Origin: Desulfovibrio sp.
GTDB lineage: Bacteria; Desulfobacterota; Desulfovibrionia; Desulfovibrionales; Desulfovibrionaceae
NCBI GenBank assembly: GCA_016208105.1
Contig: JACQYS010000002.1
Location: 1-64,000, forward strand
DNA length: 64,000 bases
Direction: 5' to 3'
Shown in pieces: positions 41,172 to 59,395 of the stretch. A model generated the notes under the pieces. It made no database searches, was not told the DNA's origin, and saw only the letters and a program-made list of their open reading frames with translations. Within the stretch, counting starts at the first letter, position 1. Each line of letters starts with the position of its first letter. The translations under genes were made by a program, and so were the position numbers.

Positions 41172-44053
41172 CCACCAGCAAATCCAGCAGGCGGTCGGCG
41201 GCAGCAGCTTCTCCGCGCACCGGGGGAATGCACACAATGCCGTCAGCATCAGCATGGGGCAAAAGAGCTTCGCACCCCTCTACCCACTGGCGCTGTTCTT
41301 CGGACAGTTCCATGTTTTCATCCAGTTCAGCGGGCCAGCGATAGCCGAGCAAGCGGGTCACAGCCACATGCAGCACCGTGGCGTCTTGGCGCAGCGGGCC
41401 GTGGGCTGTCCATTTGGCGTATTCATCCCAAACTACCGAGCCACAGGGGTGCCCGTGAAAAATCCACTGGGTGGGGTCATCGGTATAGGGCTTAGGCAGG
41501 CCGTGGGGGTATTTTTCGGCGGCAACGGCTGTCCAGTGGTCAAGGTCAAAGGGGACTTTGACAAGGGTAGCATTGGTGACGTTAAGCTTTTGGTCTATCC
41601 TGCGCACGGAAATATTGTATTCTGGGGAGGAACAAAAACACCAAATGGCGGGGAGGTGCGCGGGGTTGTGGGGGATGATGGTTGCAGCATTTTTACCAAA
41701 GACTTCCCCTGAATAAATGAATTGTAATTGGGAGACTATTCATTTGTGTAATGCGCAATCCATTTTTCCCCCAAGCATTCTTACCTTTTATATATGAACC
41801 CTGAAAATTAGCTATCACCGCTCCATCTTTTCCCCAATGAATAATATCAGTTCTACCTTGATAGTGTGTAGTCGTATTAGCATTTTGAATATATGCAGCC
41901 CATTCTAGATTTCTTTGGTTTTCCCAATTTTTTTTTACAAACTGATCAATATCGCCTGTTGTCAGTCCTTCATAACTATAGGCAATGAACTCTAATAAAT
42001 TTCCCCCTGAACTTTCCCCCAGTGCTACCCGTGCATCCGGGTTCTCCAACTGCTTCGCCTGCTCAACGGTCTGCACAGCTTCTACGCGCAGGGCATCGGC
42101 CTTGTCCTGCGCGGTGGGGGCTTCGGCAACATCCAGCCCGCGTAAAAAGTGGGCCTTGGGCTTTTCACCCATGAGGCCCCCCACAGGCATGGAGGCTTTG
42201 CCACGGCTGAGGGTAATAAGCTGAACGTTGAAGTCCCACATGGGCGTTTGAAAGCCTTTCGGCCCCAAACGCGCCACCATATGCCATACATGCTGTTTGA
42301 GCAGCTTTTCGCGAAATTTCTTGTAGCGGGTCAAAAACAGCCAGTTTTGTGGCAACACAATGCTGGCCGTGCCGCCCGTGGTGCACAAGCCCAAACAGCG
42401 TTCCAGAAAGACGGTGGCAAGATCATTCTTGGCTTCGGGGTAGTGATTTTCACAAAACTCACTTAAGATATCCCCCTGTTTGCCACGGGCCAGATAGGGC
42501 ACATTGGTAATGACAAGGGTATAGTGCTTGCCCAGCAAGGCGGCGGCACTGGCAAGGCCTTGTGCGGCCACGGCGGCTTCGTACTCTGTGCCGTCTTCCC
42601 CTTGCAGGCTTTGCTGCAAGGCTGGCTGAAGTTCGGACATGTCCACAAGGCTTGCGGCAATGGATGCAGAAGGGTTAAGCAGCGAACCCAGCACCGGGGC
42701 CTGCCGAAATTCATCATAGAGCAAGTCCAGCGCATTGCGCAGTCTGGTATTGGGCTTGGCAAGGCCCGTCCACAAGGCTTTGTCCGCAGTGACATGCAGG
42801 CCTGAACAAGCCAGATTCAGGGCAGGCAAAGGCCTATAGCCCGCTTTTGCTGCCCAGGTGCCCTGATCCCACCCCGCAAAACCTGAGCCGTCAAAGCCAA
42901 AGGTAGTGGCTGGATCGGGGTTACAATATGTCCACGCGGCAAAGGCCAGCGCAAAGGCCGCCAGTTCCACACAGCGTTGATCCAGTTCCAGACCGTGAAT
43001 ATTGTCCCGCAGCACAGCGTCTATGGCCTGCTCTGTGGTCAGGGACTCCAATTCCCGCCGCATGGGCACCAGCATCAAAAAGGCAGCCACTAAAAAATGC
43101 CCGGAGCCGCAGCAGGGGTCGAGCAATTTGAGTTCTGCCAGAGTGTTGGGCCAGTCTTCAAAGCTGCCCGCTGCCAATGCCCAGCCGCCCCCATCCTGCC
43201 CCTTATCTGGCCCCTCATCTGGCCCATCATCTTGTTTGACAAAGCGCAGATATTCCAAGGGTACACCGGGAATGGCGGCCTTTTGGCGCAATTCTTCCTC
43301 GCTTGCGGCGCTTTTCAGGTCTTCGGCACTCAAACGCTTGGCGGCCCACCATGCCCCCAAGCTATTGTCCAACAAAAAACTCACCATGTACGGCTCTGTG
43401 AAGAGCTGGGTCACGGCGGGCAATTCGCGTGCGCCTATTTTGACTTCTGCGCTGTTGATGCGCTCTTTGTTGTCTGCCTGCCAGAACTGGTACACCCAGC
43501 CCAAGCTGTCAGAAGCGGAGAACACTTCTTGCGGCAAGGCCGCCAGCAGGCGTTCCAGCCCCTGTTGGTGCTCAGGGGGCAGAGCCAGATGGAATACGGG
43601 AGAGTCCAACCGAAAAATTTGTGGCAACATGCGGGCAGCAAAGCGGGCGGCCAGCTCCCAACCGTTAGCTGCGCCTTCATCGGCGGCCAGGTCTTCGCAT
43701 TCTTCCAACGTAACCGCCACCGGATCATCGGGGTCTGGGTACATCAACAGATTGTTCTCGGCCAGAAAGCGGGCAAAGAGCATACGGTGCCAGTGCTCGT
43801 AGGCTACCTCTTCCACCAGCCGCTCCATGCTTTGCACAGGGCCGCCATTGAGGGCATCCCCAAGCTGCCTGCCATGCGCCCGCAAACGGCGGCGCAACTC
43901 GCGTTGCGGCTCGGCAAGATGCGCGGGCACGGTTTGCTCGTCCACGCCAAGCTGCCCCAGCGCGGCACGGGCTGCTGTTTCCGCCATGACACGCGCTTCC
44001 CTGATGGTGCGCTCCAAACGGCTGCGGAGAGTTCTGTCGAGGGTGGGCATGGG

Positions 44054-44515
44054 CTAAATCCTTGCAGGTTGGTCATGGCCGGAAAGATGTTCGTCAAGTG
44101 ACCAAATATACACCCTTCGGCCATGATTAAGCGCGCACTGACGATTCCATTCGTGAATGATGGATAAATCGCCTATTCCTGACTTGCGCATGGCCGAATC
44201 AGGAAAATCCGCCAACCATTTTTGCATATCTTCACTTGTGGGAAAGCTGAGTGGAGTAAATGGAATTGTTCCATCAAGAGCTTTTTGTACCTGTTCTACA
44301 AAAAGCTCCGCGCACTTGCGGCGTTGTGTTCCATCACCATTTTGAGCGATATGATTGCCTGTTTCAAAAATGGTCGCCATTGGCAGAAATAAGGATTCAT
44401 TAGCAGCTATTTTTTGCTGAAGAGATTCAAATATTTCATCACGGCAACGTGTCATGCCGGGGATATTCAATATTTCTGCAAAAATAGTGGTGTCAATAAG
44501 GCATACCGCACTCAT
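44054..44515 (-). CDS. PIN-like nuclease, partner of the AAA ATPase
   Basis: 153 residues. The PIN fold is visible from its spaced acidic residues: D8 (CLIDTTIFAEIL), E51 (ATIFETGNH), D116 (SGIGDLSII) and D141 (IWSLDEHL), which would bind the metal of a ribonuclease site. The ATG at 44515 overlaps the stop of the ATPase gene (ATGA), so the two are translationally coupled; an open frame upstream is not PIN-like. pglX starts three bases after the stop. Probably the effector of a two-gene ATPase-nuclease cassette; RNA cleavage is inferred. Confidence 0.75.
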   Translation of the reverse strand: MSAVCLIDTTIFAEILNIPGMTRCRDEIFESLQQKIAANESLFLPMATIFETGNHIAQNGDGTQRRKCAELFVEQVQKALDGTIPFTPLSFPTSEDMQKWLADFPDSAMRKSGIGDLSIIHEWNRQCALNHGRRVYIWSLDEHLSGHDQPARI

Positions 44516-45843
44516 TGGGTAGCCCCCTCTTGCTTTAAATCGTCCAACCAAGACAGGGCCGCAGCTTTGCGTTCTTGCGAAGTAGTATTGTCCTTTAAAA
44601 AACGCTCCAAAATGCGCTTTGTTGCAAGCTGCCCCAACGAACCTTGTGCCACAAGAATAGGATAGCGATCCAAATCTTTTAACCGCATTATCTTGCTAAA
44701 CCCTGTTATTATATCGCGATAACAGCACAATACATCGCCTAGAGCTTTATCAGGCACAGCATCAAGCAAGGCGGGATTGTGAGAGGTTATGAGCACTTGA
44801 AGGTTACGGGCTGAGGCAATTTGAAGAATTTGGTTTACTAATGTTTCGGCTCGGCTTGGATGTACACCATTGTCAACCTCTTCAATGATGACAAGGCTAT
44901 TATCACGAGCACTAAACAGTGTTGCAGCGATAGAAAGAACTCGCAACGTTCCATCTGATAAAAGCGGAGCGTCTACAACACGCTCTCTTCCACCAAATGA
45001 TTCATGCAAGCGCACCATTACATCGCTGCGTTCTGTCTTTATGAAAGAAATATCTGTAATATCTTGCTCTGGTAATGAACAAACAAACTTTAGAAGTTCT
45101 TCTTTTTCAGCGCCACCTTGATTGCAAATACGATATAGAACACTTGAAACATTTGAACCGTTTTCTTTGATTTCATCATCATTTTTGGCAAATGAATATG
45201 ATCTCATTGTAGATGGATTAGGATCAAGAAAAACAATATTTTGTAACGCCTCACGAATTCTTTTAGTCGCAGTTGGAATGAGCTTCTGAGATTTTTTATG
45301 CTTTTCTTCAAACCGTCCAGGTGTTTCAAGTTGATAAAAAATCGCCTGCTGACTGGAGCATGTAATCCTTGGTTTATTTCCTCCCTGCAAAAAATTATCG
45401 TACATAACATATACAGTATTTGTTGAAACGTTAGGAATTCCATCAACGCTGTAAAGCCAGTTCTTTGAAGACGGCTGCCCCAAAGATTCTTCAGTAAGTG
45501 TTAACTTTTCAGCCACAATGCCTAAAGCAATATGAAAATTGTCACTATTTGACAGGCCGAGGTTTCTCATTGCGAGCGGGATATCACAGTCGAAAGACAA
45601 ATTTTTGTTTTTATCCAAAAACAAATCTGATGCCTGCCCTCGAATAAGAGTATCTGCACCAAGGATATTGCGCTCGATGTCATCCAGACGACTTCCTTTT
45701 GCCAACCAATTCAAAAGCCGTAAGGCCTCTAAGGCATTACTCTTGCCCGAAGCGTTGGGGCCTATTAAGAATGTCATTCTCGATAGGGGAAGTTTTGCTT
45801 CCTCATAGCTTTTAAAATTTCGTATTGTGAGTGAAGAAATCAT
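44512..45843 (-). CDS. AAA/OLD-type ATPase, partner of the PIN-like nuclease
   Basis: 443 residues of the AAA_15/AAA_21 (OLD-like, ABC-type) ATPase group: ISSLTIRNFKSYEEAKLPL start, Walker A LIGPNASGKSNALEAL (26-41), ABC-like signature LLSDGTLRVLSIAATLFSAR near 302, Walker B SLVIIEEVDNGVHPSR near 325 and the switch histidine in LITSHNPALLDAV. There is no TOPRIM domain as in OLD; the separate PIN protein may supply the nuclease. Similar sensor ATPases are found in PARIS, Septu and AbiL-type defences. AT content is higher than in brxC and pglX, which suggests later acquisition. Confidence 0.8.
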   Translation of the reverse strand: MISSLTIRNFKSYEEAKLPLSRMTFLIGPNASGKSNALEALRLLNWLAKGSRLDDIERNILGADTLIRGQASDLFLDKNKNLSFDCDIPLAMRNLGLSNSDNFHIALGIVAEKLTLTEESLGQPSSKNWLYSVDGIPNVSTNTVYVMYDNFLQGGNKPRITCSSQQAIFYQLETPGRFEEKHKKSQKLIPTATKRIREALQNIVFLDPNPSTMRSYSFAKNDDEIKENGSNVSSVLYRICNQGGAEKEELLKFVCSLPEQDITDISFIKTERSDVMVRLHESFGGRERVVDAPLLSDGTLRVLSIAATLFSARDNSLVIIEEVDNGVHPSRAETLVNQILQIASARNLQVLITSHNPALLDAVPDKALGDVLCCYRDIITGFSKIMRLKDLDRYPILVAQGSLGQLATKRILERFLKDNTTSQERKAAALSWLDDLKQEGATQ

Positions 45844-45851
45844 ACTCCCCC

Positions 45852-48800
45852 CTATTTTATCACAACAGGCCCGTTATTCAGGGCTGCTTTCATTACTTGC
45901 TTGGCTTCATCTGCCCAAGCGTCAATTTCGTCAGGCGTTTTCAAGGTGCGGCGCGGCAACAGCACAAACTGCACTTCCGGTTCGCACAGCTCCGCTGCGC
46001 CCTGAAGCACTTTATCAAAACGCCCCTGCATAGCCGCCACTTTGTCTTTAAACATATTCAACGTGCAATAGTGCAACGTATTCAGCACATCTGCCGTGGT
46101 TTGCACCGCAACTGTCGGGCGAGCGTTTCCTTGCAGACTTTGTTCCGTCAAAAGCTGGTGACGCTGATTTTGATCAAGCTGCTGCCAGTTTGCATCATCT
46201 GCCAGCTTTTTCATGCCTGCGGCATGGCCAGAAGCGTATTCGCTATCTAGGTGGTTCAGTTCTTCACGCAAAAGCTGCGTCAAACTGGCGCAAAGTGGGG
46301 CTATGGCATCAGGATCGTCCAATAATTGCCGCTTGTTCTCGATAATTTGCACCTGGGCCACGATCACTTCTGCTTCTGGCAGGTTGGTGGCATGAGCAGC
46401 AAGCTGTTTCAGCGCCAGCCAGCTTTGCCAGCGCGAAGTTATGCGCCCAGACAAGTCTGTCCAGTTGTCGATACTATGAGCAAGCTCGTCACGAAGGTTA
46501 TAGATGGCAAGAAGTTGTTCATTACCTGCGGTGAGGCGCACTCCGTCCAAAAACGCTGTATCCGGGCTCTGGGGTTTGGGAGCATCCCCGCCAGCCTGTT
46601 CCGCAAGCTCCAGCATCTTTTGCATAAACTGCGGGACGCAGGCAAGTTCTTCACCTTGTTTGGCGGTCAAGCCAAGCTTTTGGAACAGTTTACGAAGTTG
46701 TATGCGCTGCGCTGTGGTAATGGTGGCAGACTCCACCTTAAAGAAGGCCTTGCCCACGGCCTTGCGTTCCAGCTCTTTAGGGTCAAGGGTTTGCCCACGC
46801 TCGTCCTGTGCCCGAATGAGCCCTGCAATCAGCAGCACTTGTAGGCCGCCATCCACCGCATCACGCGACCAACCATATGGCGAGGATTCAAAGCAGGTGC
46901 GTATATCAACCCCCTTTTTTCCTGCCGCAAGAAAGCCAAGAATAGCTTTGCATACAGGATTTCTGGCTGGTTCGCCTTCATCACCCACGACTTTCAGGGC
47001 ATCGGGTGCGCCCCTTTGGGCTTTTTCGTATACCTTTGCCCATTGCGGGTGGTCAGCAATTTGAAACTGCGGGTACAGCCTTTGGAGCGAATTGCTGGCA
47101 GCCTCCAACACCATTTCCTGAAGGTCGTTGCCCAGCATCTCATTACCGCCCGCCTGAAAGATGCGAGCACCCGAGAATGCCTCATCAAGCAATTCACGAA
47201 TTTTACCTTCCGCGCCTTGCTTGGTGGTTTCCATTGCCGCCCGCGCTTCTGTGCCTTCGGGGGTGTTTGGTACGCCGCGTTTGTCTAGGGTAGCTGTGGC
47301 GGCTTTGTAGTTGATAAGATGGGTGCGCAGGTCATCAGCAGAGCGTTTTGGTATAAATACAAACACTGTGGGGGATTGATTGCCTGCCTGCCGTGCATCT
47401 GCTCGCACAGAGTTTTCATCCGTACTCCACCCATCACGCACCCAAACACACAGACGCTGATGGGCATCTGCTGGGAGCTGAGTATCAAAGACTGGGTGAA
47501 TGTCGCGAGGAACATTTGAACTACCGTGCATCAAGGATAGCTTGCGCACAACATCGCCAAATTTTTTGCGGATACGATCTTCACGTTCTGCGTCAATTCG
47601 GTGGGCTTCGTTGGATAAGGCAGCTTGCTGGCTGAGAAATTCGTCGTTCCACGCCGTGCTTTCTTCAGTCTGTATGCGATATTCATCGCCCACACGCATA
47701 AGCAGTTCGCAGTGTGCCAAGAGGCTTTGCAGCTTGCTGCGCAACGCGCCACTGCCTTGCGAAAGATTTTCTACCAACAGGTCGGCCAGGGTATCAATGG
47801 TGGCTTTAATGCCAAGCTCCTGATTCTGGCTGCCAAGTTTGTTGATCAAAAAAACCAGGCCGCAGGCACGGGCCATAAGTTTTTCGTCGTCTGTGCCTTT
47901 ACTCCAGGTGATGGTTTTTTCATGCACTTTGCGAGGCAATATACGCGACTGGAGCAATTTGTCGGCAGAGTCAAAATAAAGATAGTCAGCCGGTACAACA
48001 TGCCCCAAGGGTTCATTCAGGTTGGTTTGAATAACCTTGTGGATCATGCTGAGCTGGTTGCGGAGCTGGCTTTCGGTGCCAGTCTGATCCAAAACCCGAA
48101 GTGTGTTTTCCCAAAAACGGCGACGCACTGGCAAAATGGGATAGTCTTGTGAGAAGTGCTGAATATCGTCTTGCATGTGCCCGATGGTAGTGCCTGCAAG
48201 ATGCCGTGAAACTTCTCCCAGATTGGTCTGCATAATTTGTTCGATTTGCGGCTTGGCTTCTGGCTTCTTAGCCAGAATTACCTGACGGATAACTGCATCC
48301 ACATCTGCGTCTGAAAGTTCAACCCGCACAGTGAAACGACCCTGTAACCGGGCCAGAAGCGCAACACCGGTAAGGGCTGTTTGCCCCGTGCCCACAAACA
48401 AAATTTTACCACCAACATTCTGGCAAATGGCTTCAACCATTTCCTGCACTTCAATGGAGCGTTCTGCACTGCCCCCAATAAACTGTTGCACTTCATCAAG
48501 CACAATCAGGGTCAAGGGAAATTTGCCATCCTTTGTCAGGGCTTGGCGAACGGCCTTGAGCATGTCGTCACTCGAAACATCCTGAACATAGGGATAGAGG
48601 TTGTTCAGCGTTTCCACACAAGATTCTGGCGTAGCAAAAAGTTTGGGCTTGGCCTGCATTAAAGCGGCGTGAAGTCCTTCTGCTACATAGAAGTTATCCA
48701 GCTCTTCTTGCCAGTTAAAGCCATTTTGCTCTACATGGTTGCGCACTTGTTCATAAATACCATCCTGACGCAACCACATGACAAAACGCGCCACAGAGTA

Positions 48801-49289
48801 TTGCTCTGGCAGCCCTGAAGATTTGAAAATAATACGCAGAAGTGCCAGCCGCACACTACCGCTGGCTCCTGAGCCAAGGGTTCCAGATGCGGCGTGCAGG
48901 CCCCCATGCCGTTTGGCTTGCGTGCTAAGCTCTTTTAATAGATCGCTGATTCCCGGCGGCAGGTTGGCAATGCCACGAGCCGTGGCCCCGTCTGCAAAGG
49001 TGGTGTCTACCCAAAGAGCCCGAAGCATCTTTACAAGGTGGGACTTACCCGACCCAAAAAAGCCGCTTACCCATACCCCCGGCTGTTGCGCTTGGTCGGT
49101 ATTTTTCAGATAGGTTTCAAGGATATGCGACATCCCTTTTTCGTACTGACCATCGCAAACAAACGTTTCCAGCTCATAACGAAGCACTGCGAGCGCATGA
49201 CTGGTTGTTTCATCATTAACGCTGGCCACACCTTCATTGACAAGCTTTCGGGTGGCGGGGTCTTTTTGGTAAATGTCGTGATTGTACAT
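45852..49289 (-). CDS. brxC: BREX protein BrxC (P-loop ATPase)
   Basis: 1145 residues, the expected size. Walker A is GFFGSGKSHLVKML at residues 76-89 and Walker B FPLTLIVLDEVQQFIGG near 263-279, followed by ARLQGRFTVRVELSDADVDA of the AAA-like core; the C-terminal half is helical with coiled coils. BrxC is an ORC/Cdc6-like ATPase required for defence and methylation in type 1 BREX. It lies 14 bases after brxB. Confidence 0.95.
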   Translation of the reverse strand: MYNHDIYQKDPATRKLVNEGVASVNDETTSHALAVLRYELETFVCDGQYEKGMSHILETYLKNTDQAQQPGVWVSGFFGSGKSHLVKMLRALWVDTTFADGATARGIANLPPGISDLLKELSTQAKRHGGLHAASGTLGSGASGSVRLALLRIIFKSSGLPEQYSVARFVMWLRQDGIYEQVRNHVEQNGFNWQEELDNFYVAEGLHAALMQAKPKLFATPESCVETLNNLYPYVQDVSSDDMLKAVRQALTKDGKFPLTLIVLDEVQQFIGGSAERSIEVQEMVEAICQNVGGKILFVGTGQTALTGVALLARLQGRFTVRVELSDADVDAVIRQVILAKKPEAKPQIEQIMQTNLGEVSRHLAGTTIGHMQDDIQHFSQDYPILPVRRRFWENTLRVLDQTGTESQLRNQLSMIHKVIQTNLNEPLGHVVPADYLYFDSADKLLQSRILPRKVHEKTITWSKGTDDEKLMARACGLVFLINKLGSQNQELGIKATIDTLADLLVENLSQGSGALRSKLQSLLAHCELLMRVGDEYRIQTEESTAWNDEFLSQQAALSNEAHRIDAEREDRIRKKFGDVVRKLSLMHGSSNVPRDIHPVFDTQLPADAHQRLCVWVRDGWSTDENSVRADARQAGNQSPTVFVFIPKRSADDLRTHLINYKAATATLDKRGVPNTPEGTEARAAMETTKQGAEGKIRELLDEAFSGARIFQAGGNEMLGNDLQEMVLEAASNSLQRLYPQFQIADHPQWAKVYEKAQRGAPDALKVVGDEGEPARNPVCKAILGFLAAGKKGVDIRTCFESSPYGWSRDAVDGGLQVLLIAGLIRAQDERGQTLDPKELERKAVGKAFFKVESATITTAQRIQLRKLFQKLGLTAKQGEELACVPQFMQKMLELAEQAGGDAPKPQSPDTAFLDGVRLTAGNEQLLAIYNLRDELAHSIDNWTDLSGRITSRWQSWLALKQLAAHATNLPEAEVIVAQVQIIENKRQLLDDPDAIAPLCASLTQLLREELNHLDSEYASGHAAGMKKLADDANWQQLDQNQRHQLLTEQSLQGNARPTVAVQTTADVLNTLHYCTLNMFKDKVAAMQGRFDKVLQGAAELCEPEVQFVLLPRRTLKTPDEIDAWADEAKQVMKAALNNGPVVIK

Positions 49290-49303
49290 CAGCTATCCTT
49301 TAT

Positions 49304-49855
49304 TCAAAATTCCTTATCAGCAGTTATGGGCACCGCAAGATAATTCCACCCGTCATAGCCATCCAGCAGCCGGTAGTTGTTGTTTTCAAAACTACCGGGG
49401 AAGAAGACCAGCAGACGCCCTGAAACCAATGGGGCCAACGCATCTACCACATCTTTTACTTTCAAAAATCCAAATAATGAACCAACACCCTTCAGTGCTA
49501 TAACAGATTCTGCGCCGAATGCTTTTTTTTGCAGGAAGCTATCAAATTCTGCAACAATATAACTGAGGTACTTGGGTAACAAAGTCGGTAAGAGGTGTGG
49601 CTTTTGAAAATAGCTGGTGGCATAGCGCTGGGAAGTCAACCAGGCAGCAAAAGTATCGGTCAGGTCAAAAATACCCCACTCATGACCTGCCTGCCGGGTG
49701 GCAATTTCAAATTCATCTATCTTGGCCCTAAGCCAGCGTTCTTCAGTTTCATTGTAGACACAAAAAATCACACGCTGTGCGGCGGCGGCATCGTTTCGCC
49801 ACGGAATCGAGATAAATTTGCTGTAGGATTGTGTCAGCCGTTTAATCCTGTTCAT
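49304..49855 (-). CDS. brxB: BREX protein BrxB (DUF1788)
   Basis: 183 residues. DUF1788 features include SKFISIPWRNDAAAAQRVIFC near the start, ERWLRAKIDEFE, and the C-terminal PLVSGRLLVFFPGSFENNNY and RLLDGYDGWNYLAVPI. The ATG at 49855 is chosen over an upstream in-frame ATG because GGAG lies seven bases before it. It overlaps brxA by 14 bases. BrxB is a structural component of the BREX complex; its activity is unknown. Confidence 0.93.
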   Translation of the reverse strand: MNRIKRLTQSYSKFISIPWRNDAAAAQRVIFCVYNETEERWLRAKIDEFEIATRQAGHEWGIFDLTDTFAAWLTSQRYATSYFQKPHLLPTLLPKYLSYIVAEFDSFLQKKAFGAESVIALKGVGSLFGFLKVKDVVDALAPLVSGRLLVFFPGSFENNNYRLLDGYDGWNYLAVPITADKEF

Positions 49856-50630
49856 GGAGCAGCTCCAATTCATGTTGGCTGATCAATTTGGGGAATCCGA
49901 TTTCGATGATCTCACCAACCCGCTTGAGATCGATCCAGCCCTTGCGCGAAGCTTCTTCAGCCAGCTCAATAATTTTACCAGGCGGGCAATCAAGAAGTTT
50001 GCCATATTCGGATTGGATAAGGGTTTGCCCCCGAAGACCAGTAAGGTAGCCAAGAAACATGGCATACGAAACGCTTGCGGCAGTTGGAGTAGCCCGCCCC
50101 CGCACCTTTTTGGCACGGCCATTCAGGTGCCCCGATTTAGTCCATGTTGCATTGATGTTTTGAGCGGTGGACTTCAAGGTGGCCTTGCTAAAGCGTCCTG
50201 GCTTTTGTGCGTCAATAAACTCTTCTAGTGATTCGCGAGCAAGCACAGTTCCTTCAGAAATATTCAAAATATGATGAGCAGTAACGCGCAAAACCGGATC
50301 ACGAGCATAGGCACAGAGCAAAGCCAGTAATGGTCTGGAAGCTGTGTCACGATTCCAAAAATATAACAGGGCTCTAAAAAGAATATTTTTATAGTCAAGA
50401 GAGTACAAATCGACAAGATATCTGCCAGTAAGAGTGCGGGTTTTTGCCGAACGTTTCCCAAGGCAGTTTTCAGCAATGATCGCGTGGAGGTATTCTTTTT
50501 TTTCTGCATCTATTCGACTTGTATGTGCAAGCAAGATGTTTAATTCTTCGAGCATCATCGTGCGCGAAATATGGGCTCCCCCCAATCCCATATTGAAGCC
50601 CAAGGCGGAAAGATAGTTATTTTTTTTCAT
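49842..50630 (-). CDS. brxA: BREX protein BrxA (DUF1819, NusB-like)
   Basis: 262 residues from the ATG at 50630, preceded by AGGA; an ATG one codon earlier is also possible, and a longer in-frame start at 50678 would overlap the HTH gene by 62 bases. The DUF1819 start (KKNNYLSALGFNMGLGGAHI) and the region SRTMMLEELNILLAH are recognisable. BrxA is a small winged-helix DNA-binding protein. It is the first canonical gene of the BREX operon, overlapping the HTH gene's end. Confidence 0.92.
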   Translation of the reverse strand: MKKNNYLSALGFNMGLGGAHISRTMMLEELNILLAHTSRIDAEKKEYLHAIIAENCLGKRSAKTRTLTGRYLVDLYSLDYKNILFRALLYFWNRDTASRPLLALLCAYARDPVLRVTAHHILNISEGTVLARESLEEFIDAQKPGRFSKATLKSTAQNINATWTKSGHLNGRAKKVRGRATPTAASVSYAMFLGYLTGLRGQTLIQSEYGKLLDCPPGKIIELAEEASRKGWIDLKRVGEIIEIGFPKLISQHELELLHEQD

Positions 50631-50820
50631 CATGTCCTGCACTAGCATCGTTTGCGCCACCTGTTCGCACCCATTCATCGGTTTCGCCTTTTTTGAACTT
50701 CCAGAGACGACCTATTTTGTGGGCAGGCATATTCTTTTCACTGATCCATCTGTAAATTGTATCGCGTTTAACACCTAAATATTCACCGATTTCATCTACA
50801 GACAACCATCTGTCTTCCAT
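50617..50820 (-). CDS. excisionase-type HTH protein, first gene of the BREX operon
   Basis: 67 residues, almost all one HTH_17/AlpA-like winged helix: WLSVDEIGEYLGVKRDTIYRW, MPAHKIGRLWKFKKGETDEW. It is the first gene behind the BREX promoter and overlaps brxA. It probably regulates the operon by binding the inverted repeat at the predicted start site, taking the role that BrxR-type WYL regulators have in other BREX loci. The same fold is fused to the helicase at 54115-56148. Confidence 0.85.
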   Translation of the reverse strand: MEDRWLSVDEIGEYLGVKRDTIYRWISEKNMPAHKIGRLWKFKKGETDEWVRTGGANDASAGHDEKK

Positions 50821-51435: not shown

Positions 51436-51768
51436 ATGGCAAGGCCAGAGCGCAAATACCATAAGCGATACACCCTCTGGGTGTCCGAAGGCGAAGCAAA
51501 ACAGCTTGAGGAACAAGCCAGCCTGGCCGGGCTTTCGGTTTCCGAATGTCTCCGCCGTCGCGGCTTTGGCGGCAGGCCACCCACTCACATAGTCGCGCAA
51601 ACGGACATGACCACAGTCCGTGAATTGCGCCGCATCGGGGGCCTGCTCAAGCATCATTTTGAAACACTGCGGCAGGCAGGAGCCAGCCGTGAGCACCTGG
51701 AAGAGCAAGAAGAAACACTGCGGATTTTGGGCCGCGCTATTGAAAGGTTGGGGAGCACAAAACCGTGA
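51436..51768 (+). CDS. mobC: MobC-like relaxosome accessory protein
   Basis: 110 residues with a ribbon-helix-helix start (YHKRYTLWVSEGEAKQLEEQ, AGLSVSECLRRRGFG) followed by a helical C-terminus, the pattern of MobC/MbeC proteins that open the strands around oriT for the relaxase. GGGAGAAG precedes the ATG. Its stop overlaps the relaxase start (GTGA). Confidence 0.85.
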   Translation: MARPERKYHKRYTLWVSEGEAKQLEEQASLAGLSVSECLRRRGFGGRPPTHIVAQTDMTTVRELRRIGGLLKHHFETLRQAGASREHLEEQEETLRILGRAIERLGSTKP

Positions 51769-54029
51769 TCGTCAAGAAGGTGAAGTACACCGACACGGAT
51801 AAGCCCAAGGTCTGGCAAATTGGCGACCTGGTGGATTATATCCGCTATCCGCACAATACCAATGCGCAAGAGAAAATCGCCCACGCCGGGAGCAGAAACT
51901 TTTTCGCCGCCACGCACAATGGCCAGAAAGTGGAGATGATTGCGCTGGCCCAAGAGAGCGTCCACAGCAAAATGCCAGTGAGTCATTGGGTATTTTCGTG
52001 GCAGGAACACGAGCAGCCAACCCGCGCCCAGGTGGATGATCTGGTGGATATTTTTCTGGAGCGCATGGGCCTTGTCGAGCACCAGACCGTCTACGGTTTG
52101 CATTACAACACCGAAAATTATCACGTCCACATCGCGGTCAATCGCATGCATCCTGTGAGCGGTAAAGTGGTGCAACCGCACAAGGGGTTCGACAAAGAAG
52201 AAGCCCATAAAATTGTCGCCCTGGTGGAACACAAGCAGGGCTGGGCCAGCGAAGCAAATTCCCGTTACTCGGTGTTGGAAAGCGGCGAGCTTGCCCGAAA
52301 CTTACGGCCTAAAAAAGTCCAGCCTCGGCAAGAGGCAATGGCCGTGGAACACGCCACCGGCGAAAAATCAGCCCAACGAATTGCTCAGGAACGGGGGCAT
52401 GACATCATCAAAAATGCTAATTCTTGGCCGGAGCTACATCAGAAACTTGCTGAAAAAGGGCTGCGCTTTGAAAAGAAAGGCTCCGGAGCCATCGTCTTTG
52501 TGGGCGAAAAAGCGGTGAAGGCTTCGTCCATAGATCGTGATTTCGGCATGAGCAAACTGTGCAAAAGGCTTGGGGAATTTATGCCAGCAGAAATCCCACC
52601 GCCTCTGGAAAAAATGCAGCCCGAACCAGTAAGCGAGGTAAGTTTGGAAGAATGGCGAGAATATCAGAAAGATATTTCTTTGCCCGTTTCGGAGCAGAAT
52701 GAGGCAAAAAAACAGCAGCAACTTGAAGCTATGAAAGCCCGTCACAGCAGCGAACGGAAGCAGATTTTAAGCGGCCTTGGCAAACGCGGGCTGCCCGTGC
52801 TCAACGCCGAACGGCACCGTCTGAAAATGCGACAGCGTGATGAGTTGCGTCAGTTTAGGCAGCAAACAGGACGCAGGCAGAAGCCCGGCAAAGGTAAACC
52901 CCACTTTGAAACCTGGCTGCGCGGGCGTGGTCTGCACACGCAGGCCGACCGCTGGCGGCACAGGTTCCGCATAGAATCCAAACGCTCGGAGCTGCCCGTG
53001 CATATGGCCACCACGGCTCCATCCACACCTGTGCATGAACAGCTCCAGCACTATGTTTCCGCTGTGAATGCGGATCGCATCCGTGTGACCTGTATCCGCA
53101 TGAAACCAGATGGCGATAAAAAGGTCTTCATTCTGGACAAGAGGGACGGAGCATCCCAAGGCTTCACTCCAGAGGAGTTGGCCGCACACCTGCCCGAAAT
53201 GCTCCGGCTTCAGCAGCGCGGCGAAAATATCTATTACACACCGCTTTCCGAGAACAGACATCACATCCTTATTGACGATATGACGCGGGAGAGCCTGGAA
53301 AAGCTCTATGCGGACGGCTTCCGGCCCGCTGTGGTGCTGGAAAGTTCACCGGGCAATTATCAATGTGTGCTCACCATTCCCAAGCTGAAAAGCCCGCACA
53401 ACCGAGACGTGGGCAACCGGATCACGGAGCGCCTCAACAAGCTGTATGGCGATCCAAAGCTCTCCGGCTGCATTCATCCGCATCGAGCACCAGGCTTCGG
53501 CAACTTGAAGCCCAAACACCGGCGCGAGGATGGCTCCTTTCCCAAGGTAAGACTGCTTAAGGCCGAAAAGCGTGAATGCGCAAAGGCTTTGGAACTGGCC
53601 AGACAAATTGAGCGTGAATATGCCGCCGCAGAAAAGGCCCGGCAGCCACAGACACACCCCCGCCCCGTGACCACACATGCACGTTCTGGAGATTCAGTCG
53701 CTGCCTACTACGCGCACTATGCGAATATCCGCCAGCACCTTGCCCTGGAAGATTTGTCACGGGTGGATGCCATGATTGCCTTGCGTCTGCGGGCCACCGG
53801 CCATAGCCAGCAGGCCGTGGCCGAAGCCGTGCGCCAATGCGCCCCCACCATCAGAGAGAAAAACGAGGGCCGCGCCTGGCAACGCTATGCCGAACGCACT
53901 GCTGCTTATGCTTTCAGCGTGGCCGGAGACTTGGCTCTGGCGAAGAATGAGCGGTATCTGGAGCACTGGCAAAGGATTGAGGGATGTGAATGGACAAGGA
54001 TGAAAACGCCAAGCATAATGGTGCGGTAA
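51765..54029 (+). CDS. mobA: MOBP relaxase fused to a RepB-type primase domain
   Basis: 754 residues. The N-terminal relaxase domain has the presumed nicking Tyr25 (DLVDYIRY), the helper motif HAGSRNFF and the metal-binding histidines H113, H120 and H122 in LHYNTENYHVHIAVNRMHP. A helical linker follows. The C-terminal part (about residues 420-620) matches a RepB-type primase: NADRIRVTCIRMKPDGDKKV, SENRHHILIDDMTRE, GCIHPHRAPGFGNLKPKHRR. The same fusion is known in RSF1010 MobA/RepB. It would nick oriT, pilot the strand and prime the complementary strand. The start is GTG. The element needs another plasmid's type IV secretion system. Confidence 0.92.
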   Translation: MIVKKVKYTDTDKPKVWQIGDLVDYIRYPHNTNAQEKIAHAGSRNFFAATHNGQKVEMIALAQESVHSKMPVSHWVFSWQEHEQPTRAQVDDLVDIFLERMGLVEHQTVYGLHYNTENYHVHIAVNRMHPVSGKVVQPHKGFDKEEAHKIVALVEHKQGWASEANSRYSVLESGELARNLRPKKVQPRQEAMAVEHATGEKSAQRIAQERGHDIIKNANSWPELHQKLAEKGLRFEKKGSGAIVFVGEKAVKASSIDRDFGMSKLCKRLGEFMPAEIPPPLEKMQPEPVSEVSLEEWREYQKDISLPVSEQNEAKKQQQLEAMKARHSSERKQILSGLGKRGLPVLNAERHRLKMRQRDELRQFRQQTGRRQKPGKGKPHFETWLRGRGLHTQADRWRHRFRIESKRSELPVHMATTAPSTPVHEQLQHYVSAVNADRIRVTCIRMKPDGDKKVFILDKRDGASQGFTPEELAAHLPEMLRLQQRGENIYYTPLSENRHHILIDDMTRESLEKLYADGFRPAVVLESSPGNYQCVLTIPKLKSPHNRDVGNRITERLNKLYGDPKLSGCIHPHRAPGFGNLKPKHRREDGSFPKVRLLKAEKRECAKALELARQIEREYAAAEKARQPQTHPRPVTTHARSGDSVAAYYAHYANIRQHLALEDLSRVDAMIALRLRATGHSQQAVAEAVRQCAPTIREKNEGRAWQRYAERTAAYAFSVAGDLALAKNERYLEHWQRIEGCEWTRMKTPSIMVR

Positions 54030-54051: not shown

Positions 54052-54097
54052 TTGACATCACTCCCGATTCTATCTATCGTTTAGTATCATTTGATAC
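54052..54097 (+). promoter_or_regulatory. promoter of the helicase operon with operator-like inverted repeat
   Basis: TTGACA (54052-54057) and TATCGT (54075-54080) are 17 bases apart. GTATCA-TT-TGATAC (54084-54097) covers the predicted start site, 17 bases before the helicase ATG. The layout mirrors that at the BREX promoter. The HTH at the helicase N-terminus is a candidate binder. Confidence 0.65.
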
Positions 54098-54114
54098 CAT
54101 ATGAAGGACAAAAG

Positions 54115-56148
54115 ATGAACCCCGAAAATAAGAATTGGTTGTCGGTGGAAGAAACAGCTTCCTACCTTAAAATAGGCAAAACTCTATTATATGCTATGGC
54201 GCAAGAGGGTAGAATGCCAGCAAGTAAAATCGGCAAAAAATGGGCTTTTGAAAAACAAGAACTTGATGCATGGGCCAGATCGAATCAGCCGGTGGAAACA
54301 TTCTTTACCAATATTGACTTTAACATTGAAGAAAATGATCTCCTTCGCGAGCCTCAAAAAAGTGCATACCTACAAGCGTATGACTTTTTCAAATCCGGTA
54401 AAAATAGAGCTATCATACAGATTCCTGTAGGTTGCGGAAAAACCGGCCTTGCTTCTATTCTTCCACTAGGGATTGCAAGTGGACGAGTCATAGTAATTGC
54501 TCCCAACTTGACCATTAAAGACGGTCTTTATGAATCAATGGATGTAACCAACCGCCAAAAGTGTTTTTGGCGTAAAGCAAAAGTTCTGGCTCCAGAACAA
54601 ATGTTGGCAGGCCCTTTGGCATGTACCCTTGACACAGGAAATATAAGCACTGCAACAAAATCTCATATAGTTATAACAAATGTCCAACAACTTGCGACCA
54701 ATTCTGAGAAATGGTTAGCGCAATTTAGTGATGATTTTTTTGATATGATCATTGTTGACGAAGCGCATCATAGTGCTGCCGCAAGCTGGCAAAAGGTCAT
54801 TGATAGGTTTCCAAAAGCTAAAATAATACTGATGACAGCAACTCCTTTTAGGAGTGACAGGCAAGAATTGAGCGGAGAACTTATATATAGATACCCATTT
54901 AGGAGTGCTTCGCTAAAAGGCTATGTCAAAAGACTTAAAGCAAGTTACGTTGCCCCATCGGAAATTCAGTTGGGATTTAAAGATGAACGTGGAAAAATTT
55001 ACACATTAGAAGAAATATTGAAACTTAAGGAGGATGACTGGTTTAGTAGAGGGGTTGCTTTGGCTCCACTGTGCAACAAACATATCGTTGATAACAGCTT
55101 GGGCAAGCTTGAAGAATTAAGAATGAGCGGAACGCAACACCAACTTATTGCTGTCGCATGTTCTATCAATCATGCAAAAGAAATTAGATCGCTATATATA
55201 GAGAGAGGTTTTACTGCGGAAGTTATTCATAGCAAACAAAAGCAGGATGAGCAGGATGCTATTCTGGTAGCGCTGAGAAATGGGACACTTGATTGTATTA
55301 TTCAAGTTCAAATGCTAGGCGAAGGATTTGATCACCAAAAATTAAGTGTCGCAGCTATATTTCGTCCATTTAGAAGCCTTGCGCCTTATATCCAGTTTGT
55401 AGGCAGGATAATGAGGGTCATTGTTCAAAATGATCCTGGACACCCAGACAATCTGGGGCACATAGTCACTCACCTTGGCATGAATCTGGATCAAAGGCTT
55501 AAAGAATTTAAGCAGTTTGAGAATGACGATCAATCTTTTTGGGATAAAGTCATTGGTGGCGAAGAGCCAGAAGTTTCGAGGGATGTTTTAAACGGTTCAA
55601 CGCGGTTACGGGCTGGAGAAAAAGTTGTAGTTCATAATGAAATTGTTGATGCTATTTGGGAAGAAGATTTTACAACAGTTGAGGAGCAACACATAATTGA
55701 GGAACTTCGCGAAAGGTTGAAGCTTTTGGGTCTTGATGAATCTCAAGCAGAGGGCATTGTAAAAAGTAGCCAAAATCCGAGCCTCACAAAAGTTGCACCT
55801 GCGGAGCCATTTCTCGTACAGCCACAAAAAGAGTGGGAAGAGGCCAAAAAAAGGCTCCATGAGCAAGCTCAACGACTTGCAAAAATTCTACTCAATCATG
55901 TTCAATTGGACATGAACGGTCTGGAAATTCCCCGTAAGTATGCAAGCTTAAAGCTTACAGGGAAAAACAACTATATATCTGCGTTGATGATGGTGAATGT
56001 CGAATTCAATAAACGGCTAGGGAAATCTCGCAATTCTGCAACCGTGGAAGATTTTAAAGCAATATTGGAGAACCTTGATGACATCATCAAGCCACTCACA
56101 AGACGACTTCGGAAAGCAAAGTCTGACTACGAAGAAAGCCAAACCTAA
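54115..56148 (+). CDS. SF2 helicase with N-terminal excisionase-type HTH
   Basis: 677 residues. Residues 8-58 are an HTH_17/AlpA-like domain (WLSVEETASYLKIGKTLLYA, MPASKIGKKWAFEKQELDAW). A superfamily 2 DNA helicase core follows: Walker A VGCGKT (105-110), DEAH box VDEAHH (214-219), TATPFR (241-246), and motif VI QFVGRIMRV near 417. The C-terminal 200 residues are helical and unrecognised. The ATG at 54115 is the family-like start with AGGA before it. The gene overlaps the next one by 71 bases. An HTH on a restriction-type helicase is unusual and suggests either self-control or site-specific loading. Confidence 0.85.
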   Translation: MNPENKNWLSVEETASYLKIGKTLLYAMAQEGRMPASKIGKKWAFEKQELDAWARSNQPVETFFTNIDFNIEENDLLREPQKSAYLQAYDFFKSGKNRAIIQIPVGCGKTGLASILPLGIASGRVIVIAPNLTIKDGLYESMDVTNRQKCFWRKAKVLAPEQMLAGPLACTLDTGNISTATKSHIVITNVQQLATNSEKWLAQFSDDFFDMIIVDEAHHSAAASWQKVIDRFPKAKIILMTATPFRSDRQELSGELIYRYPFRSASLKGYVKRLKASYVAPSEIQLGFKDERGKIYTLEEILKLKEDDWFSRGVALAPLCNKHIVDNSLGKLEELRMSGTQHQLIAVACSINHAKEIRSLYIERGFTAEVIHSKQKQDEQDAILVALRNGTLDCIIQVQMLGEGFDHQKLSVAAIFRPFRSLAPYIQFVGRIMRVIVQNDPGHPDNLGHIVTHLGMNLDQRLKEFKQFENDDQSFWDKVIGGEEPEVSRDVLNGSTRLRAGEKVVVHNEIVDAIWEEDFTTVEEQHIIEELRERLKLLGLDESQAEGIVKSSQNPSLTKVAPAEPFLVQPQKEWEEAKKRLHEQAQRLAKILLNHVQLDMNGLEIPRKYASLKLTGKNNYISALMMVNVEFNKRLGKSRNSATVEDFKAILENLDDIIKPLTRRLRKAKSDYEESQT

Positions 56149-56380
56149 AGGACCTGTTCCATCCCTTATTGGCAGCTCAAATGGCAAGCCAAAAAGGGTT
56201 GAAGTTTTGCGAAAATCGGAGTGCAAGCGCTGCAAAAGGGAATTATCAAAGGGTGAAAAGTGTATTGATATTCCTAAAGTTGGTGGGGCGCATACCAATC
56301 AAAAAAGATATTGTGATGACTGCTATAAAGCCATTCTCGATAAGACTGAGAAAGACCTTAATGAATTGAAAATGATATAG
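56078..56380 (+). CDS. small zinc-ribbon protein in the helicase operon
   Basis: 100 residues. Residues 1-45 are polar and unstructured-looking; residues 49-82 hold two CxxC pairs (CKRC and CDDC) with a further Cys62 and a histidine between, a typical treble-clef or zinc-ribbon arrangement. It may bind nucleic acid or join the helicase to the third protein. It starts within the helicase gene and ends 12 bases before the next. The start could be further downstream, because the N-terminal residues overlap the helicase coding region. Confidence 0.7.
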   Translation: MTSSSHSQDDFGKQSLTTKKAKPKGPVPSLIGSSNGKPKRVEVLRKSECKRCKRELSKGEKCIDIPKVGGAHTNQKRYCDDCYKAILDKTEKDLNELKMI

Positions 56381-56392
56381 AAGGAGCGGCAT

Positions 56393-56830
56393 ATGCGCAT
56401 ATTGGCTGTCAAACCCGGTGTTGATGAGATTACAATGGCTATTGTTAGCGGAGATCGAAAAACACCCAACTTAGAGTCCGTTAACAAAGAAGTCTATAAA
56501 ATACCGCAATCTGCTGACCCGTCCAAATGTTTGGTCGAAATTGTGCAAGAATTTAAAAGCATAATCAAGGAACGCAAAATAGAGGAGGTACACGTTGTTA
56601 AAGCAACAAAACCTCCCAAAGGTTCCCTTTCCCCAGAACGAGTAAAAAATGAAGCAGCAATCCAATTTGCATCGACTGAACAGGGGGTTCCCGTAAAGCT
56701 TATTGCGCCTCAAAGCATTAGGGCTGCTGAAAAAAAGGAAAATGAAACTGTAGATTCGATTTTTGACCATAAATTCAAATCAAAAGACAAGCGAGAGGTT
56801 GCATTTTTAGGTTTGATTGGGTTGCCTTGA
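56393..56830 (+). CDS. RNase H/RuvC-fold protein (DUF3010-like)
   Basis: 145 residues with GGAG before the ATG. The start MRILAVKPGVDEITMAIVSG, the middle IEEVHVVKATKPPKGSLSPE and VKNEAAIQFASTEQGVPVKL match the strand-helix order of DUF3010 proteins, which have an RNase H/RuvC-like fold. The first acidic position of a catalytic RuvC site (an Asp in strand 1) is not clear, so nuclease activity is uncertain; pseudo-nuclease binding of branched DNA is an alternative. Third and last gene of the helicase operon. Confidence 0.65.
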   Translation: MRILAVKPGVDEITMAIVSGDRKTPNLESVNKEVYKIPQSADPSKCLVEIVQEFKSIIKERKIEEVHVVKATKPPKGSLSPERVKNEAAIQFASTEQGVPVKLIAPQSIRAAEKKENETVDSIFDHKFKSKDKREVAFLGLIGLP

Positions 56831-56978
56831 GTCCCGCTACGCCCGAAGAGCAGAAGGCCCACATCCGTGACCTTGCCGAAAGGCTGGACGCCATCGCAAA
56901 GCCCGACAAGCCGTGCACCCGAAACTCCCCCTGACGGATATGTACGCGGTGCTGGAACAAGTGCTGTGTGCTGGTTGA
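56830..56978 (+). pseudogene. remnant of an unidentified gene
   Basis: A GC-rich stretch with coding character in two frames: PEEQKAHIRDLAERLDAIAK ends at a stop, then KLPLTDMYAVLEQVLCAG in another frame ends at 56978. It is unlike the AT-rich operon before it. It is probably the end of a frameshifted and truncated mobile-element gene. Confidence 0.45.
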
Positions 56979-57016
56979 GGCCGGAATTGTAGATCAATGC
57001 CAACTATAAATCTGAA

Positions 57017-58278
57017 CCAATGTTGTCCGGTTAAGCACCCATAGCTAACAGGCTATAACTATAGGTGTTTATAGTTTTTCGTCTTCGCGGATTCAGAAGT
57101 TCTTCCAGAGAATCCTTGCCGAACAGATTCAAGCAAATGAGCTCGAAGAGTTGTTGCACCGACAGCCCAAGCTTGCTCAGGAATTTCTGATAGGCCAGGA
57201 GTAAATACACGGTCAGGGCCGTATAAATCTGGATGTGCACCGCATTCTCCGAGCGCCCGACAAAGCTTTTAATATGCAGATTTTGTTTGACTTCGCGGAA
57301 GAATATTTCAATTTGCCAGCGTTCTTTATAGATATCAGCAATTGTCTTGGCGGACAGGCGGAAATGGTTGGTCAAAAATTCGTACCGTTTGCCGGTTTTC
57401 GCATCGCGATAGCCGATTCTGCGTAGACGAGTGGTTTTTCCCCGGCTGCTCACGTCAATGATGTGATCGGACGTGACCCCGGTTTTCCGGTCTACGGCGC
57501 GGCGATCAACGAGCTTATAGGCAGCATTGCTCTTCAGTCGGGTTACGAAGAAAATGCCCTTCGCGGTCAACATGCGAAACCAGGAATAGCAGATATAGCC
57601 TTTATCGAAGGTGACGATGGAACCCTTTGGCAATGAAAGACTTTTGGCCATGCGGCTTTCGTGGGTTTTGGCATTGTTGATATCGAGAAAAGCGGGAATG
57701 TAGCCATCGTGGTCAAGCACGGTATTTACTTTCACGCCAGCCTTGTTCCGCCGGAACGACGCCCAGGGAAAGATGGACAGGCATAGGCTGATGGTGGTGG
57801 CGTCCATGCTGTACAGCTTGCACTTGAAGCGGAATTTGTGACGAGGCGCACGAAGATGGCACAGGCCATACATTTCAGTGAACAGGTCTTTGAAAAATTC
57901 CACAGGCCTTGAATTGTTGGCATCGGCAACCGTGGAACGCGCTACTGATTTCAAGCCGAGGTGATACAGCCGTCTCTTGGCCGCCTCCAAGGCGCGAAGC
58001 CCATCGCGTAAAGAGCGCCTTGCAGCGAGTTGGATAAAGGCCATGACGGTGAATTGCTCCTTGAATCCAAATTGGCGTGAAGAGCGGCCAGTTTTGTGCT
58101 TGCGTTCGAGTTTTTCAAAAACATGTCCCGGTATCAGGGATAGCAGTTGAGAGAAGAGTGTAGTATGATGGCTCAAGTCCAAAATCTCCTTGTGTGGCAA
58201 GTTGTTGCGGTAACTTCTTATACCACATACTGCTGAGATTTTGGACTTTTTTGTTACCCCTTAGCCGGACAGCAATGG
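57017..58278 (-). mobile_element. IS4-type insertion sequence
   Basis: About 1262 bp. Imperfect terminal repeats: CCAATGTTGTCCGGTTAAG at 57017 and, on the other strand from 58278, CCATTGCTGTCCGGCTAAG. They flank a complete transposase gene. No target duplication could be fixed with confidence. Confidence 0.8.
57031..58200 (-). CDS. IS4-family transposase (DUF4372 plus DDE)
   Basis: 389 residues. The N-terminal DUF4372 domain (FKEQFTVMAFIQLAARRSLRD) and the IS4-type DDE domain are complete: Asp in LYSMDATTISLC, Asp in GSIVTFDKGYICYSWF, and the YREK-like motif with Glu in IYKERWQIEIFFREVKQNL. All three acidic residues are present, so the transposase may be active. It fills nearly the whole element. 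Confidence 0.9.
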   Translation of the reverse strand: MPHKEILDLSHHTTLFSQLLSLIPGHVFEKLERKHKTGRSSRQFGFKEQFTVMAFIQLAARRSLRDGLRALEAAKRRLYHLGLKSVARSTVADANNSRPVEFFKDLFTEMYGLCHLRAPRHKFRFKCKLYSMDATTISLCLSIFPWASFRRNKAGVKVNTVLDHDGYIPAFLDINNAKTHESRMAKSLSLPKGSIVTFDKGYICYSWFRMLTAKGIFFVTRLKSNAAYKLVDRRAVDRKTGVTSDHIIDVSSRGKTTRLRRIGYRDAKTGKRYEFLTNHFRLSAKTIADIYKERWQIEIFFREVKQNLHIKSFVGRSENAVHIQIYTALTVYLLLAYQKFLSKLGLSVQQLFELICLNLFGKDSLEELLNPRRRKTINTYSYSLLAMGA

Positions 58279-58318: not shown

Positions 58319-58618
58319 ATGTATTTATCGCAATCTCAAAGAACAATAGAATTGTATACAGAGTTAACAACAATGATTTGTGATTTCATTGGCGTATCTA
58401 GAATAGCGCAGAGTACTGAATTTGACTATAATAATACAAAGCTAAATGAATTTTATGCTGATATAATTAGCAAGATGCACATGAATAAGGATATTTTAGT
58501 TAAGATTTTAGAATTGACTGGAAATGGAAGGTTAAAGCATCGCGGTTTCAAGTTCAAAGTGCAACACCCAGTCCTTGGGTATTGGCGTCTTCTAAAAAAA
58601 CTTCATAGGGTGTCTTAA
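58319..58618 (+). CDS. hypothetical protein, truncated by an IS30-type element
   Basis: The AT-rich gene starts MYLSQSQRTIELYTELTTMI and is helical and leucine/isoleucine-rich. From about residue 73 (58540 onward) the reading enters the IS30 terminal repeat, so the last 25 residues are not native. Truncated; no family recognised. Its base composition matches the helicase operon, so it may be the remains of further cargo. Confidence 0.5.
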   Translation: MYLSQSQRTIELYTELTTMICDFIGVSRIAQSTEFDYNNTKLNEFYADIISKMHMNKDILVKILELTGNGRLKHRGFKFKVQHPVLGYWRLLKKLHRVS

Positions 58619-59203: not shown

Positions 59204-59395
59204 TATGAGCAGCTGAAACTGTACGGCGTGTATGTACAGGAACCGCCCCGCCCCCTGGACCCGGCAGAAACGCTGACCCCCTATCTGGAGACAACCATCT
59301 ACCGCCTGGACCGCACCCAGGACGGCATCGGGGTTGTCAGCTTTAAGGCTGGGCACGAAAAGCCTTTATGGCGTCATGTCCAATCGGCCCCGTGA
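59204..59395 (+). pseudogene. C-terminal remnant of an unidentified gene
   Basis: A GC-rich open frame from the IS30 breakpoint to TGA at 59393-59395, with GVYVQEPPRPLDPAETLTPY and IYRLDRTQDGIGVVSFKAGH. It has no start of its own. Its composition matches the flanking backbone-like DNA and not the island core. Family not recognised. Confidence 0.5.

What the first reader, a model, noticed from the sequence alone, without database searches (positions are those of the whole stretch)
54052..56830. HTH-helicase, zinc-ribbon and RuvC-fold trio: candidate undescribed defence or element-maintenance system
Three overlapping or closely spaced genes share one promoter: an SF2 helicase that carries its own excisionase-type HTH, a small protein with two CxxC pairs, and a DUF3010-like RNase H/RuvC-fold protein. 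They lie in a defence island between a mobilization module and BREX, and they are AT-rich like other recent cargo. Known helicase-based defences that I can name (Hachiman, Zorya, Gabija, DISARM, type I restriction) do not have this partner set. The domain calls are from motifs I can read; the link between the three and their role is inference.
Basis: partly seen in the sequence, partly recalled or inferred. Interest (0 to 1): 0.85.

Follow-up and report, generated by a model that had tools for sequence, protein, structure and literature searches.

The report
Helicase and zinc-finger-like gene pair
Two of the three flagged genes, a DNA-binding helicase and a tiny zinc-finger-like protein, form a widely shared pair that sits among phage-defence genes and probably controls its own promoter, while the third gene looks like a local neighbour.

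Summary
The three genes exist as described, but the conserved unit is a pair, not a trio. The SF2 helicase (54115-56148) and the four-cysteine small protein (56078-56380) stay together: the small gene adjoins the helicase in 77 of 79 testable genome loci and in 6 of 6 helicase-bearing genomes, own included, of 395 in the phylum. The DUF3010-like gene adjoins no other helicase in the 126 loci tested. Neighbours are rich in defence genes: 104 PADLOC families matched among 93 neighbour proteins, 2 among 107 control proteins from the same 11 genomes; Gabija, Hachiman, SIR2-HerA and type I restriction genes lie beside it. HTH-bearing helicases have three direct repeats of 10-bp period at their promoter (46-48 of 51 close, 16-17 of 30 distant relatives); HTH-less ones do not (1 of 18). 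In the window the repeats overlap the -10 box and the pattern occurs once in the 4.18-Mb genome. The small protein's model resembles PARP1 zinc finger 1, weakly. Best reading: an autoregulated, horizontally spread anti-invader helicase module. Defence activity and repression are inferred, not shown.

The parts
54052..54080 (+). promoter-like site TTGACA-17-TATCGT
   Evidence: consensus scan
54075..54104 (+). three direct repeats of 10-bp period (TATCGTTTAG TATCATTTGA TACCATATGA), putative operator; the first coincides with the -10 hexamer
   Evidence: sequence; pattern; statistics
54115..56148 (+). SF2 helicase of ResIII/RadD-XPB type with N-terminal HTH, 677 aa
54136..54285 (+). excisionase/MerR-like HTH_17 domain of the helicase (residues 8-57)
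56078..56380 (+). small partner protein, 100 aa, two CxxC pairs, predicted PARP-Zn1-like fold
56393..56830 (+). DUF3010-like protein, 145 aa; local third gene, not part of the conserved pair
51765..54029 (+). context: relaxase fused to RepB-type primase
51436..51768 (+). context: NikA-like mobilization protein
41693..50678 (-). context: BREX genes PglX, an AAA protein, BrxC, BrxB, BrxA

Best explanation
A two-gene module that limits foreign DNA (phages, plasmids) and spreads by horizontal transfer. The helicase is an SF2 translocase of the ResIII/RadD-XPB type; the small protein is its constant partner and most likely a DNA-binding zinc finger that recognises DNA ends or broken DNA and directs the helicase to it. 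The helicase's N-terminal HTH binds direct repeats, one per helical turn, that overlap the -10 box of its own promoter, so the helicase represses its own operon; when foreign or broken DNA engages the helicase the operator is freed and expression rises. Shown: pairing, defence-gene neighbourhood, spread across phyla, conserved ATPase motifs, repeats that track the HTH. Inferred: binding and repression, DNA-end recognition, titration, any effect on phage or plasmid. The DUF3010-like gene is a passenger or an optional accessory.
For: Pairing: 77 of 79 testable genome loci (in the other two, L042 and L090, the small gene is nearby); 6 of 6 helicase genomes of 395, own included; G073 holds remnants of both genes. 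Defence context with matched control: 104 against 2 PADLOC families; GajA/GajB in L030, HamA/HamB and a type IIG enzyme in L025, SIR2-HerA in L138, HsdR and a DrmD-like helicase in L139; Shedu in L004 (annotation); BREX in the window. Spread: the window's supported set of 14 tree rows spans seven other phylum-level groups. One copy per genome in 26 of 26. K109, D215, E216, H218, T243, R431 and R434 invariant in 56 of 56. Operator: period-10 repeats in 46-48 of 51 and 16-17 of 30 HTH-bearing loci, 1 of 18 HTH-less, 6 of 60 other genes of the same loci; different repeat words in the two groups; the two-repeat pattern occurs once in the own genome. Fold: PARP1 entries are 13 of the top 16 PDB matches of the small protein; RadD tops the helicase list.
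Against: No phage or plasmid assay. No nuclease domain was found in either protein. The PARP match is weak: best E 0.42, 0 of 70 matches at E 0.001 or better, TM about 0.4. All four cysteines are kept in 50 of 50 close but 0 of 46 distant small proteins; 20 of 46 keep C49, C79 and C82, so zinc binding may not be universal. Many copies lie on plasmids or viral contigs, one directly after a replicase gene (L009), which also fits element maintenance. The neighbour test covers 11 loci, control positions were picked by hand, and one protein can match many PADLOC models. The two-repeat pattern was not found at the helicase promoter in 4 of 8 genomes searched.
Confidence: 0.6

Rival explanations
1. 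Element maintenance: the helicase and its partner help a plasmid or conjugative element replicate, repair or transfer its own DNA, with the repeats acting like iterons of a replication region.
For: Relaxase-primase gene 85 nt upstream in the window; helicase gene overlapping a replicase gene on a 5.9-kb plasmid (L009); no replicase recognised on the 16.6-kb plasmid L006, where 5 of its 14 proteins were scanned; many plasmid copies.
Against: L009 and L174 carry their own replicase. HTH-less versions sit in SIR2-HerA and type I restriction operons and, as a group of 18, lack the repeats. Copies sit on large chromosome contigs. Defence-gene enrichment against control.
Confidence: 0.2
2. Damage control for restriction: a RadD-like repair helicase that tends DNA ends made by neighbouring restriction or BREX systems, protecting the host instead of attacking the invader.
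For: RadD is the closest solved fold and best NCBIfam hit; PARP Zn1-like partner; type I restriction genes next to the pair in L139.
Against: Neighbour systems are very varied and some, such as SIR2-HerA, are not known to cut DNA (recalled).
Confidence: 0.12
3. A real three-gene system: helicase, zinc protein and RuvC-like nuclease act together.
For: Identical GC of the three genes, tight spacing.
Against: No other helicase locus has the third gene; two of its three relatives go with a kinase; the first catalytic aspartate is missing.
Confidence: 0.05

Closest known systems
RadD (YejH) DNA repair helicase
   Same: closest solved fold and best NCBIfam hit of the helicase
   Different: 77.8 bits against a cut-off of 720; here an HTH at the N-terminus, a separate small partner, and mobility
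Hachiman (HamA-HamB)
   Same: helicase plus one partner, in defence islands
   Different: no HamA or HamB match for these proteins; true Hachiman genes lie beside the pair in L025
SauUSI type IV enzyme and HsdR motor subunits
   Same: partial PADLOC and fold similarity of the motor
   Different: no nuclease domain recognised here
MADS MAD1 HTH protein
   Same: similar HTH, 57.2 bits
   Different: below the cut-off of 80, and fused to a helicase
PARP1 zinc finger 1
   Same: predicted fold of the small protein
   Different: weak score; cysteine pattern not the same; stand-alone protein of 100 aa
DUF3010 (PF11215)
   Same: the third protein passes the Pfam cut-off
   Different: only 28-39% identical to its three relatives, two of which precede a Ser/Thr kinase gene

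Membership tests
Hachiman | HamA (DUF1837) gene beside a HamB helicase | tested here: not met
   no HamA or HamB model among the matches of the three proteins at E 0.01
other PADLOC 2023 helicase systems | full-length match of helicase and partner to a system's models | tested here: not met
   helicase best 55.4 bits over part of an mREase_IV model; small protein and third protein none
RadD | NF053632 score of at least 720 | tested here: not met
   77.8 bits
MADS MAD1 | NF047737 score of at least 80 | tested here: not met
   57.2 bits
SF2 helicase | Walker A, DEAH, TAT and motif VI residues, core domains | tested here: met
   residues invariant in 56 of 56; ResIII and Helicase_C above cut-off
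PARP-type zinc finger | fold | tested here: inconclusive
   13 of top 16 PDB matches, but best E 0.42
PARP-type zinc finger | binds zinc and DNA ends | not testable with these tools
   needs purified protein
DUF3010 | Pfam gathering score of 25 | tested here: met
   37.2 bits
RuvC nuclease | Pfam cut-off and first catalytic aspartate | tested here: not met
   12.7 against 22.2 bits; K, T, C or V at that position in four proteins; position of the aspartate recalled
anti-phage defence system | protects cells from phage or plasmid | not testable with these tools
   context evidence only
plasmid replication module | host plasmids have no other replicase | tested here: inconclusive
   replicase present on L009 and L174; none recognised on L006

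The most novel reading that the evidence does not exclude
A widespread, undescribed immune module in which one protein is both effector and repressor: the helicase sits through its HTH on repeats spaced one helical turn apart over its own promoter; a PARP-Zn1-like partner finds DNA ends of invading DNA and draws the helicase away, which attacks that DNA and at the same time releases the operon. It would be a PARP-finger-type DNA-break sensor in prokaryotic immunity.
Probability: 0.25. Interest if true: 0.85.

Novelty: new variant of a known kind. Interest (0 to 1): 0.62.

Why it matters
The pair occurs in many bacterial phyla and in one archaeal assembly, yet no PADLOC 2023, NCBIfam or Pfam model describes it as a unit, and seven library searches listed no paper that I could recognise as describing it; that library lacks most subscription papers, so earlier description is not excluded. 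The match of HTH and promoter repeats gives a sharp, cheap test of a self-regulated helicase, and the two-protein set is small enough for biochemistry.

Tried and rejected
The trio as a unit: rejected; a profile of the DUF3010-like proteins found, among 126 loci, only the window's own copy (L001, L010) and the three loci that had been fetched with it as query. P0003 in plasmids: no match. P0003 in viral contigs: 10 pattern stretches, none a relative. Two weak hits of the P0003 profile in the phylum (G276, G303; 25 and 24 bits) were not followed; I take them for ordinary RuvC, untested. G383 has a partial match of 43 profile positions to the small protein and no helicase in its 3.1-kb locus; it is counted among the 8. 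A palindrome as operator (GTATCATTTGATAC) was dropped for the period-10 direct repeat, since palindromes differ between loci. The pattern TATCRTTTNNTATCRTTT with at most one mismatch lies at the helicase promoter in 4 of 8 genomes (own included); in G564 the only hit is elsewhere; G565-G567 have none; the reversed control pattern hit once in the 8 genomes. Upstream rows (51, 30, 18) were not dereplicated: near-copies such as L050/L051, L115/L121 and L116/L117 count separately, and L107 among the 18 'HTH-less' is a broken copy that may have had an HTH. In the distant group period 9 also gave a weak signal (z 3.0). The neighbour comparison used 93 of 161 listed neighbour proteins and 107 of 191 control proteins, because of the residue limit. 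Viral contigs L109, L111 and L113 share another small gene in place of the zinc protein; L110 and L016 have still other ORFs there. The helicase in phage records: 9 records, none covering 80% of the query, at most 27% identity.

Full report
What is there. The block at 54.05-56.83 kb holds three genes: an HTH-bearing SF2 helicase, a small four-cysteine protein and a DUF3010-like protein. All are 40.6-40.7% GC in a window of 55.0%. Upstream on the same strand are NikA-like and relaxase-primase genes, and BREX lies beyond them on the other strand. Downstream are transposase genes recognised by eye. Further along the contig are genes that I read by eye as T4SS genes, so the whole is probably an integrative conjugative element.

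The pair. tblastn found the helicase at about 73% identity in Rhizobium and Aminobacter plasmids, followed by a small gene that the plasmid gene table does not list. One genome scan gave 80 loci at 39-76% identity from many bacterial phyla and one Methanolobus assembly. A profile grown from the small protein matched 98 of 126 loci, the window's own counted twice. Of the 80 genome loci, 79 have room downstream of the helicase; in 77 the small gene starts between -160 and +60 nt of the helicase end. In L042 (helicase frame broken) and L090 (1.3 kb away) it is nearby; L064 ends at the contig edge. In 395 genomes of the phylum, own included, the helicase was found in 6 and the small protein in 8. 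All six helicase genomes have both, adjacent. Of the other two, G073 holds remnants of both genes and G383 only a partial match to the small protein.

The third gene. A DUF3010-like gene was found in 4 of 198 genomes, own included. Of the three relatives, L128 follows an HsdR gene and precedes a Ser/Thr kinase, L129 precedes a Ser/Thr kinase, and L127 shows no such neighbour. No helicase locus but the window's has it among the 126 loci searched. Majorek et al. (PMC3985635; passages seen) place DUF3010 in the RNase H-like superfamily, similar to Holliday junction resolvases, and report conserved active-site residues; in the four proteins here the position of the first RuvC aspartate is K, T, C or V. 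In seven loci a different gene of about 155 aa follows the small gene. The slot after the pair is therefore variable.

Defence context. Proteins of 180 aa or more within 6.5 kb of the pair in 11 loci (93 proteins) matched 104 PADLOC families at E 1e-25; 107 proteins from control stretches of the same 11 genomes matched 2. One protein can match many models, so these are not counts of systems. Named cases: GajA and GajB directly after the pair in L030; HamB, HamA and a type IIG enzyme beside it in L025; SIR2 and HerA directly after it in L138; HsdR before it and a DrmD-like helicase after it in L139.

The operator. Upstream of HTH-bearing helicases lie three direct repeats with a period of 10 bp. 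Among closer relatives (45% identity or more) 48 of 51 rows exceed the 95th percentile of their own dinucleotide shuffles (46 in a second run), among distant ones 16 of 30 (17). Periods 8, 9, 11, 12 and 13 stay near chance, apart from a weak signal at 9 in the distant set (z 3.0). Controls: 1 of 18 HTH-less helicases and 6 of 60 other genes of the same loci. The repeat word differs by group: TATCRTTT in 26 of 51 close and 0 of 30 distant rows, KGTTGYATA in 0 of 51 and 10 of 30. In the window the first repeat coincides with the -10 hexamer. The two-repeat pattern occurs once in the own genome; in seven other genomes it lies at the helicase promoter in three, elsewhere in one, nowhere in three; the reversed control pattern hit once in all eight. 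That repeats and HTH go together is direct evidence; that the HTH binds them and represses is inference. Excisionase-type HTH proteins can bind side by side on direct repeats (recalled).

Structures. The small protein (46-row alignment, mean pLDDT 83) has PARP1 entries as 13 of its top 16 PDB matches, the best with prob 0.96 but E 0.42. The helicase (56 rows, mean pLDDT 84) has RadD in its first eight rows (best E 5e-16), then XPB and HsdR. All four cysteines are kept in 50 of 50 close small proteins and 0 of 46 distant ones; 20 of 46 keep three of them.

Evolution. In a 56-row tree the window falls in a supported set of 14 rows with members from Pseudomonadota, Nitrospirota, Chloroflexota, Acidobacteriota, Bacteroidota, Melainabacteria and Binatota (several are metagenome bins). 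Of the five other helicases found in its own phylum four are 39-44% identical and one 52%. This points to horizontal transfer.

Mechanism and rivals. The best reading is an anti-invader helicase module with a DNA-end-finding partner and an autoregulated promoter. Element maintenance is the main rival: relaxase or replicase genes adjoin some copies, but L009 and L174 have their own replicase, HTH-less versions sit in defence operons and as a group lack the repeats, and no phage record carries a relative that covers 80% of the helicase.

Literature. Searches showed listings and abstract starts only; passages of PMC12458937 on YprA helicases do not describe the pair.

Noticed in passing
50617-50820 (-): A small HTH gene at the start of the BREX operon scores 79 against the NCBIfam cut-off of 80 for MADS MAD1 and is 43% identical to the helicase's HTH.
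   Followed up: partly
44512-45843 (-): A protein matching the PADLOC candidate PDC-M07A (630 bits) lies between BrxC and PglX.
   Followed up: no
L128:5827-7304; L129:4890-6474: DUF3010-like gene directly followed by a Ser/Thr kinase in two genomes, one behind type I restriction genes: possibly a separate two-gene set.
   Followed up: partly
L004, L027, L031, L085, L090, L092, L097, after the small gene: A gene of about 155 aa (CGHFPI motif) follows the pair in seven loci; its L004 copy has no Pfam match.
   Followed up: partly
L109, L111, L113: Viral contigs with an HTH-less helicase and a different small partner gene that starts at the helicase stop.
   Followed up: no
56831-57030; 57031-58200 (-); 58554-59294 (-): Downstream of the block a GC-rich stretch (57%) unlike it, then two putative transposase genes recognised by eye.
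   Followed up: no
G000:C2:76001-96000 (L142): Genes read by eye as a type IV secretion system on the same contig: the region is probably an integrative conjugative element.
   Followed up: no
L137, L138, L139: HTH-less helicase and zinc protein embedded in larger operons with SIR2-HerA (L138) or type I restriction and a DrmD-like helicase (L139); L137 neighbours by eye only.
   Followed up: partly
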